From Mesodorylaimus sp. YZB2_4 (taxonomy: Eukaryota > Nematoda > Enoplea > Dorylaimida > Dorylaimidae): a DNA stretch of 64,000 nt. The stretch spans positions 672,845 through 736,844 of the forward strand of contig JASANH010001726.1 of assembly GCA_030248295.1 (NCBI GenBank), in the 5' to 3' direction. Below the pieces are notes generated by a model. That model was not told the origin of the DNA. It saw only the letters and a program-made list of their open reading frames with translations, and searched no databases. Of the stretch, positions 40,410 to 48,040 are shown one piece after another (the first letter of the stretch is position 1; the number at the start of each line of letters is the position of its first letter). Made by a program: the position numbers and the translations under genes.

Positions 40410-40935
40410 TGACGCTGACGACTAATGCAGAAAATATATCTCGTTACTCCTCAAGGCATAATCAATATCGGCCTTCACAAATATGATGAGCTTTTCATCA
40501 AAGTCAGTGCATGTTATGAGGAACAAAACAGAAAAAGCAAAAAGCCTTTTAGAAAAACTTGATGTGACTACTGTATTTCAATCAATTCGAAACAGCCTGT
40601 GACGATTTCGTTCGCTCGATCGCCTGGCTTGTCAGGTTACTTCTACAAAGATGATTCGATTTTACTAAATTAGGTGGCCGAGCGGAAAGTAATAAGACGG
40701 AATATTAAACAGAAAAAGTAGGTCCGAGCTGCGCCAGAGAAGAAAGAGATATCTACAATATGTATTTTCCAGCACTACATACCAGCATCGACCGAACTCG
40801 GTTTTTGCACCTAACCGAACCTTACCGAACTTTTCCTCAAATCTCACTAACGATGAACCCGAACCGAACCAAACAGAATTTCCTATGTTCACCCACATCA
40901 TACATCCTCCATAAAGTTCATCATCATCTGTGTAT
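40410..40935. other. Spacer upstream of the DEG/ENaC gene
   Basis: This should hold the channel promoter. I see no gene or clear element in it. Confidence 0.35.
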
Positions 40936-41631
40936 TATATCGGGTGTGCCATAAAGAATGACCTTCTGCAAGTTATCGCGGTAGTCAGCAGTATGCGGTC
41001 TGACTTACGATTAGCTTGACCTAGCTTATTTACTTGCCACTATACTCGCACTCGTTTTAAAACGCGATATAGGCGAGAGTACCAACTTTACCAACTTTTT
41101 TCACAATATCCAGACGAATTCGTTTCACGGCAAGCTTTTATTCAGCTTTTAGAGCTGCTTTGGTTTTTACTCGATCCCAGTTGATTGCATGTCGAGCAAA
41201 TTCTTCCCAAACTGATTAGTCTAATGGGTTCAATCGGGACTATTCAGAGGCCAACGCTTAGCTTCGATAAAATCAGGAAAATGATCCCTGCATTATTTCT
41301 GTAAATCTTTGTGGGCATGAGCCTTCGCACAATCTTGCTGAAAGATCCAGCTGTTCCAAAATACCTTTCTTCCATATTTCTCGGCTCCTAGCAATACTAT
41401 TTCCATATAAACGGAATGATTGACTGACCTTTACCCAATATGACCAGCGGTTCAACCAAATTTCTGAGGTCTTGACTTTTCATTTCTTTGTACAAGCACC
41501 TGAACAATAAGACGGACGATGCAGAATTGAATGCATCATGTGCCTGTGTTAGTGTAAAGTCAACAACGCGACTGCTTCCGAAGAAAACTAGCAATGACTG
41601 TGAGCGTCATTCCTTATGGCGCACCCGATAT
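40936..41631 (-). mobile_element. Decayed Tc1/mariner (IS630 superfamily) element
   Basis: The ends are near-identical inverted copies of ATATCGGGTGYGCCATAA. Internally the minus strand keeps pieces of the transposase catalytic region: WIFQQDCAKAHAH with the second catalytic Asp, DHFPDFIEAKRWPLNSPD just before the third acidic residue, separated by stops and frame changes. About 700 bp remain, so roughly half of a full element has been lost. Its right end is about 70 bp from the virus-like element that follows. Confidence 0.8.
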
Positions 41632-41702
41632 TTTAAAAATATTTAAAAAGTTAATCCCTTTTAACCACTTTTTAAAATAAACTTTTGAAGATAATGAAGA
41701 AA

Positions 41703-42037
41703 GGATATAATTTTTTGATGTGCAGGTACATTACAGTAGGATGTATTTTGATCTTTTTCAGGATTTATTTTGTTGATGAGTAGTACATTACAGTAGGATA
41801 AATTTTTTGTTGATGAGCAAGTACTCTATACTTTGTTGATGTGCAGGTACATTACAGTAGAATTTTGTTGATAAGCAAGTACATTACAGGAGGGTAAACT
41901 GTGTTTACTCGCGGGTTCTGTATTATAATTTTGTTTCATCTGTCTTTTTAATTACTTTCTGCTTTATGTGTGTGCGTGTGTCTGACCACAAGAAGTTGTA
42001 TTTGAATAAAATGATACAACATTCAAATTTTCTGAAT
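41703..42037. repeat. Left terminal inverted repeat with iteron-like motif
   Basis: It holds about four copies of a motif close to GTGCAGGTACATTACAGTAG joined by TTTTGTTGATG linkers, then a shared unique part running to AACATTCAAATTTT. The reverse complement is found at 46128-46506 with few differences. Confidence 0.85.
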
Positions 42038-42187
42038 TTCTGCGTCTCGCCCTCAATTACGCTCACAAGTCTTGAATTTTGTCATTTTTGATGAGCATCA
42101 TGCCCGGTTCTCCCATTCTCACATTTTTTGAGTAGAAAAGTGCAATGTAGAACTAAAAACAAAGATTTTCAATGAGTTTTCAGTGTC

Positions 42188-42349
42188 ATGGCAGATCAGC
42201 CACGCGCTAGAAGTAACCGCCCTGTTGATCGATTATCTTTGTTCTCTTTGTTGGGAAAGGCTGGTCCAGCTAGGAAAAGTCTTCAACAAAAGTCCAAGAA
42301 ACGTAAAAGCCAGAAAAATAAGAAGATCCAGTCTAAAAAGAGGAAATGA
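42188..42349 (+). CDS. 53-residue highly basic protein of the virus-like element
   Basis: Starts MADQPRARSNRPVDRLSLFS and continues into a tail that is nearly half Lys/Arg (KKRKSQKNKK type). The stop TGA shares bases with the ATG of the capsid gene (ATGA overlap at 42346-42349), an arrangement typical of compact viral genomes and rare in animal genes. By position and composition it could be a DNA-condensing core protein, like the small basic core proteins of adenovirus-type viruses; that is inference. It is the first ATG inside the left repeat and in a good position to be translated before the capsid. Confidence 0.65.
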   Translation: MADQPRARSNRPVDRLSLFSLLGKAGPARKSLQQKSKKRKSQKNKKIQSKKRK

Positions 42350-43631
42350 GTCGGTTAGATACAACGGTCGACCTGGACGTTTTCTCAGAACCGCCAGAAG
42401 AACTTATCGTTAGTATCGCTGAAAGTAGGATAGAAACCATTTCTGTCAATCTACCTTTACCTAACAATGACGTCAATTCACCATTGGAATTTCGCATACC
42501 AAGTGTTCCTACGTGGTTTACTGATTTGTCGCCCACCCTCCTGGAAGTGCACATGAAAATCCAATATGCGGCTGATAAAGGTATCCCCAAAACGAAACAT
42601 ATTGGTCTGGTGCCGAATGTGTTAATGTCCATGTTCTCTGGTGTCACTTTATTGTTTAATAACGAAATGATACTCCAAAGCAGCAACTGCTTGCCATGGA
42701 GCGCTTACTTGGACGTGCTGGCTGGCTGCCCCTACGATCAGCGAGAATCCTGGTTGAGCACCAGTGGATGGTACGACGGCGGCTTAGATGGACTGTCGCC
42801 AGAATCGTTGGACGCATTCAAACCTTATTTCGAAAGTGGTATAGGCCATCTGATCGGACCAGTACAGCTGGATTTCTTCAAAATGCGCAAATACATTATT
42901 CCGGGCATCGAAATGGTCGTCCGCTTGTTCCGGCGTATCCCAAAAGCATTCATAATGTATATGCGGGAAGAAACAACGAAGAGTTCACAGTGACAATAGA
43001 AAGGGCCTACCTGCATGTACGTCGTGTCAGATTGCACGACGCATCCTTGGCGGCCATGGAAAGACGCCTGATGACGACCCCTGCCCAGTACATGTTTACC
43101 GACACGGTCCTGAAGCCGATCATTGTGCCCGAAGGTGTGTCGACAATGGAGGCCTGCATTTACGAAGGCATATTGCCAGCACGTTTGGAAATCGTACATT
43201 TGTTACCAAGTGAATTCACTGGTCCAATTCTCAACAATCCGTTCAAATTTCAACCTTTCTACATGAAAAACGTGGCCTTAGAAAAGAATGGTGCGCTTGT
43301 GACTGCTTATCAGTGTGATTTTGTGAAAAATGACTATGCGCGCATGTACTTGGACTATTTCTTGAATTCGGGCTGTTGCTTGGATAAAGCGGGCATGTCC
43401 GAAATCAACTATGAAAATTATGCCAGTGCATATAATATCATGTGTTTTAATCTGGAACGTTTCGACGAATGCTTTAGTACTTTTAAACCAACGCACGAGC
43501 TGGGTAACTTACGTTTGAAAATTGATTGCGATACCAGTGCCGTATCACAGAGACCATTGGTTATTCTGTGTTTGCTGCGTTTTAATCGTATTATCAAAAT
43601 CAATGCGCAGAAAATGTTGGTGTCTCAATAA
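42346..43631 (+). CDS. Double-jelly-roll major capsid protein (F54H12.2-like), one frame break
   Basis: Main virion shell protein of the Polinton/adintovirus type. The N-terminal frame (42346-42993) has the family start pattern (LDVFSEPP, then a substrate-like SPLEFRI, then LFNNEMI and YDGGLDG). The C-terminal frame (to 43631) carries FTVTIERAYLHVRRV and onward, and is one base behind the first. The switch lies between about 42935 and 42970. A CCCAAAA run at 42939-42945 fits the pattern of a -1 slippery site, but family similarity seems to continue a few codons past it in the first frame, so a one-base loss or a sequencing error is at least as likely. Total about 428 aa, normal for the family. 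The stop overlaps an AATAAA signal (43627-43632). Start chosen at the ATG overlapping the basic-protein stop. Confidence 0.75.
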
Positions 43632-43703
43632 ATTTGTATTTACTGAGCTTTCCGTTTTGATATAAGGAACGTAAACAAGCCTAGATCAGCAGCACATCCA
43701 GTC

Positions 43704-44357
43704 ATGGCTACTGGCGAGGAAGGATATGCGTCCGTGTTTGCTGTGCAAGTTCCCTTCACCATGACTGTCGCCGGCAGTACTTCCTCGGGCAAAACCTACT
43801 TCGTCATGCAACTTATTCGAAATCGAAACAGGATATTCAGCGTCCCCATCAAAACCGTGTATTATTATTATGGCACTTGGCAGCCGCTGTTTTCGTCAGT
43901 AGAAGCAAGTGGAATAAAGTTTGTCGAAGGCCTGCCCACAGTTGACGAGACTGCGCCAAATTCGCTTTTGATCCTGGACGATTTGTTTCCACAGCTGGCC
44001 CAAAACAAGGAACTCGTCGATTTGTTTTGTGTCAAATCGCATCATAAAAATATCAGTGTTATTTTCATCACCCAGTCGTTTTTCTATGACTCCAAAGTCA
44101 TGCGCTGCGTTACGAGAAATTCGCATTACGTAGTTCTTTTCAAGTCACCAAGGATGGCGGCCGTGGTTGAACAGCTCTCTCGACAGCTTTGGCCTCACAG
44201 ACCCAAGTACTTATTGGATGCGTACAACAAGGCCACGAAAGACAGACAATACAGCTACCTGTTCCTGAACTTGCACCCAAAGGCGGATGAAAAGTTGGCG
44301 GTGATGTCAAATATATTCCCCACCAAGGACGATTATTATCCGCACGTGTTCATTTGA
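43704..44357 (+). CDS. A32-like (FtsK/HerA superfamily) DNA-packaging ATPase
   Basis: Predicted to pump the genome into the capsid. Intact 217-residue frame. Walker A is AGSTSSGKTYFV (about 24-35), Walker B is LLILDDLFP (about 88-96), and a third motif ISVIFITQSFF with the conserved Gln follows at about 115-125. The compact size is normal for Polinton, adintovirus and poxvirus A32 relatives. It lies 72 bases after the capsid stop in the same orientation, the usual pairing. A polyadenylation hexamer follows at 44443-44448. No stop or frame break is present, so it may have been mobile recently. Confidence 0.85.
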   Translation: MATGEEGYASVFAVQVPFTMTVAGSTSSGKTYFVMQLIRNRNRIFSVPIKTVYYYYGTWQPLFSSVEASGIKFVEGLPTVDETAPNSLLILDDLFPQLAQNKELVDLFCVKSHHKNISVIFITQSFFYDSKVMRCVTRNSHYVVLFKSPRMAAVVEQLSRQLWPHRPKYLLDAYNKATKDRQYSYLFLNLHPKADEKLAVMSNIFPTKDDYYPHVFI

Positions 44358-44399
44358 GCAATGTAACTGTCAATATAACAGCGTACTCTGTACATTTTT

Positions 44400-45420
44400 A
44401 GTGTATAGAAGTAAAAAAAGAACAAAAATATAATGTGATGGCAATAAAATTCTTAAGAAATAAGCGAAAAAGGGCAAAAATCTCCAAAAACTTTCTAAAA
44501 ATGCGTAAAATTAGTGAAAATGCTCGAAAAGATTCACCAAAAATGCGTAACAAACTATAAAAACTATGAAAATACGCTTCGACATACGTAGAAAAATTCG
44601 AAAACAGATAAGAAAATTTGAAAAACACCCTGAAATTAGTACATAATAAACAAATTTACACGAAAAACAGTAAAAAGTGATCAAAAGTTGAGAAATATGT
44701 CTGAATATCTTCAAGAAAAGCAAACAAACACGCCTGGAAACGATGAAAGTTTCAGAAATTTGATTGAATATAACAGAACTAGCGTTTGATCAACAAAAAT
44801 TTTGCAAAAAAAAGATTTCAAAACTACGAAAAATATGCCCTAGCATCCGTAAACACTTCAAAAAAGCTCTTAAAATTTAAAAAATTCATGCTAAAATCCA
44901 CAGATTTTCAAAACATTCTCTTCAAATCAGTGAATAATAAAAAATATGCACGACAAAAAGTGAAAAATCGCTTAAAATTGATTCATAATCATCAAGATTT
45001 CACCATTATTCACCGAAAAAATTGATGGGAAATTTGTAAAATTTTAAATTGAAACAGAAATTTGTAAATATATGTCATAAAAGTAGTAAATTTACGACAA
45101 AACGAGGCGTGAAATCATGGGAAAAAGGCAAAACTTGCGAAATATGGTGCGATAATTGCTAAAAGTTCACCAAGGGTGGGTTAAAAAGTAACTATTTCAT
45201 GAAAATTTACTCTAATATACGTAGAAAAGTTACCCAAAAAAGAGTTTTCTTCAGGAAAGGACTCAAAATACACAGAAAAACGAAGAAAAAGTCTTCAAAA
45301 CGGTGACTGTCGAAAAATTAACAAAACTTTCTGCATCTTATTCAAATAATTTATTGGAAAATTACCAAAATCTTTGTAAAATTCGAAAACGCGATTCAGA
45401 AGATCTGTGAAGTGTCAAAA
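44400..45420 (+). other. A-rich, strand-biased spacer inside the virus-like element
   Basis: About 1 kb with very high A on the plus strand and many near-copies of GAAAAAT.CG-type words (for example AAAATGCGTAA, GAAAATACG). It has no long convincing gene; a 79-residue Lys/Asn-rich frame at 44786-45025 looks like composition. It could be an origin, a stuffer of packaging length, or a decayed gene. Confidence 0.6.
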
Positions 45421-45627
45421 ACGGGCGAGGCTCACTTACAGTACTTGAAGGCTTCCGATTGGTCAACGAGAGTAAGGCATCAAAATCGGGCGAAGCTAAG
45501 ATGGGCGAGGCTGGATGACTCATCACACCTGGGCAGGCTAAGGCAGCTCCTCTCTACTGACCAGCGACATAAATGAGCCACCCACTCTTAATTTGTGAAT
45601 CATTTGCTCTGTGGCAAGCGTGGAGTC

Positions 45628-46110
45628 ATGTCGGTTCAAGACGCTCTCTCCCTCTATGTCCGACGAGTCAGATTCCGTTCTGGAAAACGGATAACGTTGA
45701 CGCCCTACCATCTACTCCCTTGGAAGTCGGCCAATCTATTGCAGTCGCAGCCCAACGCTATTGCCAGCGAAGGCGACGCTCAATGGCCAGTGCTGGTCAA
45801 ATTTATTCATCAGCATCCAAACGGCCGGCCGAAATCGATTAAAGAGCTGATTGATAAAAGAGAAGATTATTTTTTGCAACGAGACGAAGAGAGAAACGTA
45901 CAATTTAAAAAAGATTGCCCAGTTTGGTATCGCTGTCAGTCGATCATGGCTGTTTGCAAAATGAATAAAATAATTTTGCTTTGCTTTAATCCAATCAGTT
46001 CAGATATACTTGACGTTCCTGTTCATTTTGAAAGTGAAGCCTTTGCTGATACATTTTGTGATCTGGGTATCAAGTTGAATTTGGTGGAGGAGCCTCTGGA
46101 TTCTAGTTAA
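45628..46110 (+). CDS. Hypothetical 160-residue protein of the virus-like element
   Basis: I do not recognise it. The frame starts MSVQDALSLYVRRVRFRSGK (an upstream in-frame ATG at 45595 would add 11 residues). It is basic in the first half, with PKSIKELIDKREDYF in the middle, a CPVWYRC pair, and an acidic C-terminus (LVEEPLDSS). No membrane helix or signal peptide. The stop is 18 bases before the right terminal repeat, so it belongs to the element. Penton, replication-initiator or host-control roles are all open; size is small for a penton. Confidence 0.6.
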   Translation: MSVQDALSLYVRRVRFRSGKRITLTPYHLLPWKSANLLQSQPNAIASEGDAQWPVLVKFIHQHPNGRPKSIKELIDKREDYFLQRDEERNVQFKKDCPVWYRCQSIMAVCKMNKIILLCFNPISSDILDVPVHFESEAFADTFCDLGIKLNLVEEPLDSS

Positions 46111-46127
46111 TTTGTGTAGCTTCTGTA

Positions 46128-46600
46128 AAAAAATTTGAATGTTGTATCATTTTATTCAAATACAATTTCTTGTGTTCAGACAGACACACACACACACATA
46201 AAGCAGAAAGAAATTAAAAAAGACATATAAAACAAAAATATAATACATAACCTGCGAATCAACACAGTTTACCCTACTGTAATGTACTTGCTTATCAAGA
46301 AAGTCTTACTGTAATCCCCAATCATGATCGAAATGTCAAAATAAATCCTACTGTAATGTACCTGCACATCGACAAAGTATAGAGTACTTGCTCATCAACA
46401 AAAAATTTATCCTACTGTGATGTACCACTCATCAACAAAATAAATCCTGGAAAAGATCAAAATACATCCTACTGTAATGTACCTGCACACCAACAAAATA
46501 TATCCTCCAGTAATGAACTTGCACATCAACAAAATCCTACTGTAATGAACTTGCACATCAACAAAAATCTACTGTAATGTACTTGCACACCAACAAAGTG
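46128..46600. repeat. Right terminal inverted repeat and extra motif copies
   Basis: Matches the left repeat in reverse to about 46506. From there to about 46600 the motif TCCTACTGTAATGTACTTGC plus ACATCAACAAAA continues for three more copies that have no partner on the left. At least nine copies are present in all. Such stacked short motifs at an end look like binding sites for a replication or transposition protein. Confidence 0.8.
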
Positions 46601-48040
46601 ACCATGCAGAGTACTCATTTTTCACTCAGCTTGGCAACAGCTCAGGGAACACGAAGTAACTCACTCACAGACAGCCTTTCCACCCACCCCTTTTTCACTA
46701 ACTTTTAACTTTAAACTGTCCGATAGACCCCACTGCCAGCAGCAGTCTCACAAGCGGACTCACAGTCAGTCCAGCAACCTAAAAAGACACCCTTAGTACC
46801 TTTACACTCACTTAAACCGTCTACTACAAAACAGCCCTTTACACAACTTTCACACTGCGCACTGCACGCGCGCTTTTCACTCCACACTTTACACTGCACG
46901 CGCGCTTTTCACTCTACACTTTACACTGCACGCGCGCTTTTTCCTTCACACTTTACACTGCCAATGCTTAACCATTGGTGGCTCAATAAGGTCAAGTGCG
47001 ATAAGTGCAAGTCAATAAGGTCAGGTACGCTTATACTACTCATGTGTATACTAAGTTAAAAATTAATGTTTGTTCGTCAGTGCACGTATGCGTGGTCGGG
47101 ATGTCCATGATGCTAAAGATAAGCTGATGCAACAGGTTGTGCATACTGTAGGTTATGTACTGCTCTTCGTTCAGCAGACCAATAGCAGCCATATATTACT
47201 TTTTTTCTTAATTTTGACGATGATAATTCTCTGCAGTAGTCTTGCTTCTGGGGAAACTTTCTGCAGGCCGAGCAAACCGAGTTCCCCAGCCGAGCCCGCC
47301 GAAAAGCAGACACAATGTTTCAATTGGCGTCGCGGCTTCTAATGTGAACGACCCAGCTGAGCTGAGATGACCGCTAGCCGCAAACTGAGCCAACCGAGGC
47401 ATGTAATGTGAACGCACGTCAGCTCACGATCACCTGAAAGTTCGGCTGGCTCGGTCAGCTCGGCAGCCGATCAGCCGAGGTGCAATGTGGACGCCGCTTA
47501 AGCTGCTGTCCCCAGCTGGAACAGAACTGCGGCTCCCGGAATCTCAGTCCAGTTTCAATCGAGATAGAATACACGTGGATAAAGATGGATTCAGGGTGAA
47601 ATCCATGAGGATCCGTTGAAAAATCCATGGCGAATTCCAACGTGGATTTGCACGTTGTTCTACGTGCAAAGAACTAAAGCACAATAGTGCATATATGTTA
47701 TAGCAGACACTATTGATATGTCTCTCGTTCTTCTGAATTCGTTTCTAAGAGATAGCCAGCCCACATAAGTCAGATTTAGTTAAAAGGGCACAAGCACGCA
47801 TACATCAGGGCTTCGGAAAACACATTAGCATCAAGATCTCCATAGCCACGAACAAGCACTGATGGTGATGACCTGAGTTGTTGCTGTGAGCACTGAGTGC
47901 GCTGATTTGTTGTCACTCCGCCAATCACAATAACGGCGGCTGTGATCATTTTTTAGCATACTGTAATGTGATGATGTTCAAGGCTCAGGGCGTCTTACCC
48001 CCATTCCCTAGCGTGGTTGTGCCTGCGTCTGGCGGTAGAT
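46601..48040. other. Spacer with a 32-bp tandem repeat
   Basis: At about 46861-46960 a 32-bp unit containing CTGCACGCGCGCTTTT and CACACTTTA is repeated three times. The minus strand carries a 62-residue Cys-rich frame (46711-46899) overlapping the repeat, without signal peptide; it is probably chance. Around 47270-47490 there are many GCCGAG/CAGCCGA words. No gene can be supported. Confidence 0.4.

What the first reader, a model, noticed from the sequence alone, without database searches (positions are those of the whole stretch)
41703..46506. Minimal virus-like element: capsid plus packaging ATPase between long inverted repeats, no polymerase or integrase
Seen: inverted ends of over 300 bp, four same-strand genes, 4.8 kb. 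Known: double-jelly-roll capsid plus A32-like ATPase is the morphogenesis core of Polintons, adintoviruses, virophages and Polinton-like viruses, which are usually 10-25 kb and bring their own PolB and integrase. Inference: this is a satellite or a stripped, packaging-competent lineage that depends on a helper for replication and integration.
Basis: partly seen in the sequence, partly recalled or inferred. Interest (0 to 1): 0.88.

Follow-up and report, generated by a model that had tools for sequence, protein, structure and literature searches.

The report
Stripped-down Polinton keeping its capsid genes
This is one damaged copy of a small virus-like transposon that kept its capsid and DNA-packaging genes but has no polymerase or integrase, and whose ends match those of polymerase-bearing Polintons in the same genome, so it probably moved with their help.

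Summary
The element is real, but its bounds are wrong. The right terminal repeat runs to about 47,040; the left one is truncated at 41,703. It holds a small basic gene, a double-jelly-roll capsid gene (broken by a frame change), an intact A32-type ATPase and an intact 160-aa ORF4. There is no polymerase or integrase.

It is one of a family on at least 12 contigs of a 145 Mb genome. Seven of 7 contigs with the near-full spacer carry ORF4, and 9 of 9 with a close capsid leader carry the terminal repeat. Of 19 related stretches scanned, only one shows an integrase match, from a neighbouring, different Polinton. Two relatives have perfect 6-bp target duplications.

It is not a plain deletion: ORF4 is ~93% identical to Polinton family B, capsid and ATPase only 70-72%, and the trees conflict with full support. 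Inherited capsid and ATPase variants sit at third codon positions (34 of 53; spacer 8 of 36), so the proteins were under selection.

Best reading: a mosaic, non-autonomous Polinton mobilised in trans by family-B enzymes. A packaging-competent satellite is plausible, unproven.

The parts
41703..42031 (+). left terminal inverted repeat, inner part only (outer ~0.5 kb missing)
   Evidence: inverted match to 46130-46506; genome-wide copies; flank 40500-41720 without a match in L009-L032
42188..42349 (+). 53-aa lysine/arginine-rich ORF; its stop overlaps the capsid start (ATGA)
   Evidence: same N-terminus in L009, L010, L018, L019 (short) and L023, L024, L025 (full Polintons), altered in L029, fused to the capsid frame in L030, not seen in the distant L027; L041 does not reach it
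42346..43631 (+). double-jelly-roll major capsid protein gene, broken: two overlapping frames (42346-42993 and 42696-43631), frame changes near 42.9-43.0 kb
   Evidence: ORFs; 74% identity of the first ORF to the intact 432-aa capsid of a full Polinton; fold of homologue P0027
43704..44357 (+). A32/FtsK-type packaging ATPase, 217 aa, open
   Evidence: Pox_A32 2.9e-7; GSTSSGKT and LILDD motifs (names recalled), up to 73% to database homologues
44358..45422 (+). A-rich spacer with no convincing gene; near-full copies in the short family
   Evidence: 7 contigs with at least 98% of 44400-45400, a diverged piece in C161; inherited variants show no third-position excess
45423..46110 (+). family-B-like segment: short upstream stretch plus ORF4 (45628-46110, 160 aa, open)
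   Evidence: ORF4 92-94% DNA identity to C397 and C750 Polintons, similarity starting at 45423; ORF4 tree
46111..47040 (+). right terminal inverted repeat with internal ~32-bp units; ends ...TACTACT
   Evidence: terminal block shared with full Polintons
47041..47046 (.). candidate right-hand target duplication (CATGTG); partner lost with the left end
   Evidence: read; inference from C365 and C96, which keep both sides

Best explanation
The window holds a decayed copy of a non-autonomous, mosaic Polinton. Shown: the unit TIR - basic protein - capsid - ATPase - spacer - ORF4 - TIR recurs with the same junctions; its ORF4 and ends belong to Polinton family B, while its capsid-ATPase cassette belongs to another Polinton lineage for which I found no carrier with polymerase or integrase here; its terminal ~70 bp resemble those of full Polintons; relatives made 6-bp target duplications. 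Inferred: the PolB and the RVE integrase of a family-B Polinton recognise these ends and replicate and insert the short element in trans. Further inferred, less surely: the retained capsid and ATPase were kept because they worked, most simply by helping to build or fill particles that carried the short DNA, with any other virion proteins and enzymes supplied by the helper, as in a satellite virus.
For: Recurrence: near-full spacer (at least 98% of 1001 bases) in 7 contigs, all 7 with ORF4 on the expected side (5 within 0.25 kb, 2 with a 5-6 kb insertion between); capsid leader at 88% identity or more over at least 240 of 306 bases in 9 contigs, all 9 with the TIR next to it. Absence: 19 stretches on 15 contigs scanned with integrase, PolB and other full-Polinton proteins (12 loci, 4, 3); no PolB match, one integrase match, in L011, from a different Polinton (its capsid 38% identical). 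Shared ends: 48 exact genome hits of the subterminal motif, 0 for the reversed control; terminal blocks. Transposition: 6-bp duplications GATATG at C365 and TTTATA at C96, a 3,402-bp capsid-only relative. Mosaic: against C750 ORF4 92.6%, capsid 70-71%, ATPase 72%; tree splits 100/100. Selection: inherited variants at third positions 34 of 53 in capsid+ATPase, 8 of 36 in spacer (Fisher p = 1.1e-4), singletons 144 of 361 in capsid+ATPase, 59 of 186 in spacer; pooled dN/dS 0.33-0.40 against 0.57-0.74 in spacer pseudo-frames.
Against: No copy was shown to be mobile, transcribed or packaged. No short copy that I read has every gene open: the window's capsid is broken, and capsid ORFs in C745, C234, C365 and C258 are split too. 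The selection signal is modest, the spacer control is below 1, and 0.33-0.40 is far weaker than the 0.08 between short and full elements (where not saturated). Of the two short copies in which I found both termini clearly, C365 has a clean target duplication and C745 has none. Five further contigs (C161, C846, C175, C96, C678) have the capsid leader at 73-82% without this TIR beside it, so the lineage also exists apart from family-B ends. Family-B integrase was seen with PolB and ORF4 on one contig (C397), but I saw no single stretch with a whole family-B element. PolB was named from motifs (recalled), since no library model matched it. Genome search lists score only the best candidates.
Confidence: 0.7

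Rival explanations
1. Plain internal-deletion derivative, the Polinton counterpart of a Ds element: capsid and ATPase are passengers left over from the parent, and only the ends matter.
For: Gene order and orientation match the full Polintons (MCP-ATPase ... ORF4-TIR). ORF4-only (C35, C846) and capsid-only (C96) forms exist, so gene content is not fixed. The short copies read are decayed.
Against: Capsid-ATPase and ORF4-TIR come from different lineages. Inherited variants in capsid and ATPase are biased to third codon positions, in the spacer not.
Confidence: 0.4
2. The copies descend from an autonomous Polinton with this capsid lineage and these ends that still exists outside this assembly; the short forms are its repeated deletion products.
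For: The assembly is in 1067 contigs and several Polinton matches lie at contig ends; search lists are lower bounds.
Against: The same junctions recur in 7 of 7 and 9 of 9 contigs, which independent deletions would not give. None of the 14 contigs with a capsid match of at least 80% over 100 residues is listed with an integrase or PolB match (110 of 430 and 51 of 353 candidates scored; the distant integrase in C234 found is missing from that list, so it can miss distant ones).
Confidence: 0.2
3. Domesticated locus: the host keeps the capsid or ATPase for its own use, for example antiviral interference.
For: Open ATPase and ORF4 in the window.
Against: Many dispersed copies, those read mostly decayed; broken capsid here; terminal repeats retained.
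Confidence: 0.03
4. Assembly or palindrome artefact.
For: Some Polinton loci in this assembly are large palindromes (C657, C861).
Against: Copies on separate contigs that differ by several percent; 6-bp duplications in relatives.
Confidence: 0.02

Closest known systems
Polintons/Mavericks (polintoviruses), including adintoviruses
   Same: DJR capsid and A32-type ATPase; long TIRs ending (AGT)2//(ACT)2, the end type given for vertebrate Mavericks; 6-bp target duplications in relatives
   Different: No PolB, no integrase; about 6 kb instead of 15-20 kb; capsid cassette and ends of different descent
Non-autonomous DNA transposons (Ds elements, MITE-like derivatives; comparison recalled)
   Same: Ends of an enzyme-bearing partner in the same genome, no mobility enzyme, amplified as a unit
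   Different: Keeps virion genes with signs of selection, and is a chimera of two element lineages
Virophages and other satellites with their own capsid (comparison recalled)
   Same: Capsid and ATPase retained while depending on another element for replication (inferred here)
   Different: Virophages carry their own replication genes and depend on giant viruses; here the presumed helper is a genomic Polinton; particles unknown

Membership tests
[quoted passage not shown]
   no PolB match in the window element or in 19 stretches of short or related copies; present in long relatives, there named from motifs
Polinton/Maverick | RVE integrase | tested here: not met
   none that belongs to the short copies; full relatives have rve 7.3e-8 and a Chromo domain 3.4e-5, the latter just under its cut-off
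Polinton/Maverick | DJR major capsid protein and packaging ATPase | tested here: met
   capsid gene broken in this copy
Polinton/Maverick | penton and maturation protease | tested here: inconclusive
   the full relatives' proteins upstream (128 aa) and downstream (158, 145, 120 aa) of capsid/ATPase have no match in the short copies (matches in L011 belong to another Polinton); I did not establish which of them is penton or protease
Polinton/Maverick | TIRs with Maverick end motif | tested here: met
   right end ...TACTACT at 47040; AGTAGT...ACTACT in other copies; motif from PMC8097293 passages
Polinton/Maverick | 6-bp target site duplication | not testable with these tools
   left end of the window copy is lost; met in C365 and in the relative C96, absent in C745
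Non-autonomous transposon family | same ends as an enzyme-bearing element in the genome | tested here: met
Non-autonomous transposon family | multiple insertions of the same short structure | tested here: met
Satellite virus | dependence on a helper for replication, shown | not testable with these tools
   only inferred from missing enzymes and shared ends
Satellite virus | particles that contain the satellite DNA | not testable with these tools
   no particle or expression data

The most novel reading that the evidence does not exclude
A satellite class inside an invertebrate-type genome: short elements that make particles with their own capsid lineage, copied and inserted by the PolB and integrase of a resident Polinton, and that took on ends matching that helper. 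The capsid lineage outlived its own autonomous parent by riding on another Polinton.
Probability: 0.33. Interest if true: 0.85.

Novelty: new variant of a known kind. Interest (0 to 1): 0.62.

Why it matters
Polinton surveys look for long elements; the capsid study of 2014 removed everything under 10 kb as incomplete (PMC4028283, passage). If short elements keep capsid and ATPase under selection, a layer of Polinton-dependent satellites may have been filtered out by design. It also gives an indirect test of whether Polintons make particles: a non-autonomous element has little reason to keep a working capsid unless particles matter to its spread.

Tried and rejected
Rejected: assembly artefact (copies on separate contigs). 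Rejected: local one-off deletion (junctions shared by 7 of 7 and 9 of 9 contigs). Tried without gain: one scan of viral contigs gave no relative of the ATPase. A relative of ORF4 (from C846) found no homologue at E <= 0.001 among 8 candidates; the window's ORF4 and that relative match no Pfam family, and the window's no PHROGs family, so its function is unknown. PDB, PHROGs, Pfam and NCBIfam did not identify the PolB by model, so I name it from recalled motifs (ATWDCEA, TYNGG.YDL, DFNALYL, GNSSYGK, DTDS; seen). Host not named: a COX1 copy reads with the invertebrate mitochondrial code, possibly a nuclear copy. TIR divergence was not used for dating, because the arms of one element differ by up to 28% (C96). 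dN/dS was computed two ways; the spacer control gives 0.57-0.74, so I rely on the codon-position test.
Full report
WHAT IS THERE. The inverted repeats are real, but the stated bounds are not those of the element. Other copies in the same 145 Mb genome (G000, 1067 contigs) show that the right repeat continues from 46506 to 47040, where it ends ...TACTACT, and that the left repeat of this copy has lost its outer ~0.5 kb: 40500-41720 has no match in L009-L032. Between the repeats lie, all on the + strand, a 53-aa basic ORF (42188-42349) whose stop overlaps the start of the capsid gene, the capsid gene in two overlapping frames (42346-42993, 42696-43631), an open ATPase (43704-44357), an A-rich spacer, and ORF4 (45628-46110 from its first ATG).

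WHAT THE PROTEINS ARE. The ATPase matches Pox_A32 at 2.9e-7 and has 25 database homologues at E <= 0.001. The capsid protein has no significant library match. An intact relative from the same genome (432 aa) has 9 database homologues; the AlphaFold2 model of one of them (P0027, 71% identical to that relative, mean pLDDT 76.8, pTM 0.79) matches iridovirus, chlorovirus and virophage double-jelly-roll capsid proteins with probability 1.00, at TM-scores of about 0.5-0.6 and about 10% sequence identity. The basic ORF has the same N-terminus in four short copies and three full Polintons. For ORF4 I found no known family.

THE SHORT FAMILY. The capsid N-terminus finds 14 contigs with at least 80% identity over at least 100 residues. 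A near-full copy of the spacer (at least 98% of 1001 bases, 77-100% identity) occurs in 7 contigs; all 7 have ORF4 on the expected side, 5 within 0.25 kb and 2 (C354, C365) with a 5-6 kb insertion between. The capsid leader occurs at 88% identity or more over at least 240 of 306 bases at 11 places on 9 contigs; all 9 contigs have the TIR next to it, and one of the three places on C234 is an inverted piece that does not. Together these two sets are 12 contigs. At 73-82% identity the leader occurs on five more contigs (C161, C846, C175, C96, C678) without this TIR beside it. I scanned 12 loci, 4 and 3, together 19 stretches on 15 contigs, with integrase, PolB and the other proteins of full Polintons. 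Apart from ORF4-like matches, hits to these proteins occurred only in L011 (integrase, 128- and 158-aa ORFs), and they belong to a different Polinton there whose capsid is 38% identical. None of the 14 contigs is listed with an integrase or PolB match, which score only the best candidates and miss, for instance, the L011 integrase. Gene content varies: C35 and C846 hold near-palindromic ORF4-only forms, C96 is a 3,402-bp form with one capsid gene and a stub of the ATPase, and C161 has capsid, ATPase and diverged spacer without ORF4 or this TIR in the stretch read.

TRANSPOSITION MARKS. C365 has GATATG on both sides. C96 has TTTATA on both sides. C773, a PolB-bearing family-B form, has CTGGCT on both sides. 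C745 has both ends but no matching flanks, nor have the two ends found at C349, which holds full-Polinton genes. The ends AGTAGT...ACTACT are the (AGT)2//(ACT)2 type that a vertebrate Maverick survey lists, with 6-bp duplications (PMC8097293, passages).

LONG POLINTONS IN THE SAME GENOME. Family A (C713, C604, C657) has a 167-aa ORF 27% identical to ORF4 (ORF27), a zinc-finger ORF, integrase, a 128-aa ORF, capsid, ATPase, 158-, 145- and 120-aa ORFs and PolB, not every gene open or reached in every copy. Family B is seen on C397 (integrase part at the contig end, zinc finger, ORF27, open PolB of 1042 aa, ORF4, TIR), C750 (TIR, ORF4, PolB with stops, 120-, 145- and 158-aa ORFs, ATPase, open capsid of 433 aa), C773 (ORF4 at both ends, open PolB of 1092 aa, no capsid, ATPase or integrase match) and C861. 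No single fetched stretch shows a complete family-B element. A family-A integrase has rve and Chromo domains. The terminal ~70 bp are alike in short elements and in families A and B; a subterminal pattern built on them has 48 exact hits in the genome and none when reversed.

MOSAIC ORIGIN. Against C750, the window is 92.6% identical in ORF4 and 80.9% in the outer TIR, but 70-71% in the capsid gene and 72% in the ATPase gene; against C397 ORF4 is 93.5%. Capsid and ATPase are 73-76% identical to family A. The similarity to family B begins at 45423. Between the window and another short copy (C258) the figures are about 95% for capsid, 91% for ATPase and 94% for ORF4. In the ORF4 tree (12 rows) the short copies and C397/C750 form one clade of 8 (100/100) apart from family A and C846; inside it five short copies group with weaker support (92/96). 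In the capsid tree (16 rows) and the ATPase tree (13 rows) families A and B form one clade (100/100) apart from all rows of the short copies' lineage (100/100). The short element therefore joins ends of family B to a capsid-ATPase cassette of a third lineage. Exchange of modules is known in this group: adintoviruses with unlike PolB and hexon clades are reported in PMC11071296 (passages).

SELECTION. Among 6-8 copies per region, variants found in two or more copies fall at codon positions 1/2/3 as 4/2/11 (capsid N), 2/0/10 (capsid C) and 4/7/13 (ATPase), together 34 of 53 at third positions, against 8 of 36 in the spacer (Fisher p = 1.1e-4); singletons, mostly decay after insertion, give 144 of 361 in capsid and ATPase and 59 of 186 in the spacer. 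ORF4 gives 11 of 23 and 39 of 83. Not every copy used keeps both ends, so a few variants may predate the short structure. Pooled dN/dS is 0.40, 0.37, 0.33 and 0.28 for capsid N, capsid C, ATPase and ORF4, and 0.57-0.74 for spacer pseudo-frames, so the method is biased below 1 and the effect is moderate. Between short and full elements the ATPase ratio is 0.08 where synonymous change is not saturated. I left codons with stops, gaps or three differences out.

MECHANISM. Shown: shared ends, missing enzymes, repeated structure, target duplications in relatives, mosaic descent, constrained variation. Inferred: replication and insertion by family-B PolB and integrase. Less sure: particles. A survey of fish Mavericks argued that purifying selection on virion genes shows spread through particles, whereas neutral envelope genes in endogenous retroviruses point to copying in trans or within the genome (PMC8097293, passages); by that logic the short element's capsid did something for it. 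The opposite reading, passengers in a deletion derivative, stays open.

LITERATURE. Six phrases for non-autonomous, defective or truncated Polintons or Mavericks gave 0 papers in a library of 5.39 million open papers. Five broader searches (listings of 25 of 71, 20 of 91, 12 of 23, 15 of 20 and 12 of 18 papers) showed no short capsid-bearing Polinton family in the titles and abstract starts that I saw. In PMC4028283 (passages) elements under 10 kb were removed as incomplete. PMC10120064 (passages) notes that many protist elements lack a detectable polymerase. Subscription papers and Repbase were not searched, so earlier description is possible.

Noticed in passing
L040 with L044 and L045 (C773): An ~11.4 kb family-B form with open PolB and ORF4 at both ends but no capsid, ATPase or integrase match, flanked by CTGGCT duplications: the complement of the window element.
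   Followed up: partly
L029:2500-5901 (C96): A 3.4 kb element with one capsid gene between TIRs and a perfect 6-bp target duplication TTTATA.
   Followed up: partly
L017:1-3372, L031:1-3158: Near-palindromic ORF4-only forms with terminal repeats of the same type.
   Followed up: partly
L051 (C161:181500-189000): Capsid, ATPase and diverged spacer of the same lineage (DNA 66-89% to the window), without ORF4 or this TIR in the stretch read; perhaps an older form.
   Followed up: partly
L021, L025 (C657, C861): Full Polintons lie head to head as about 97-98% identical inverted copies: replication products or assembly artefact.
   Followed up: no
L027, L028 (C678, C225) and hits: A third Polinton family (ATPase ~42% identical) with open ATPase copies on at least ten contigs.
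   Followed up: no
window 40926-41642: 37-nt inverted repeats (81%) 643 nt apart just outside the truncated left end, perhaps a small transposon.
   Followed up: no
window 46852-46961: Three tandem 32-bp units inside the terminal repeat, more in another copy (L009).
   Followed up: no
C24:634992-637935: Two ATPase copies in inverted orientation, 83-90% identical to the window's in the parts matched.
   Followed up: no
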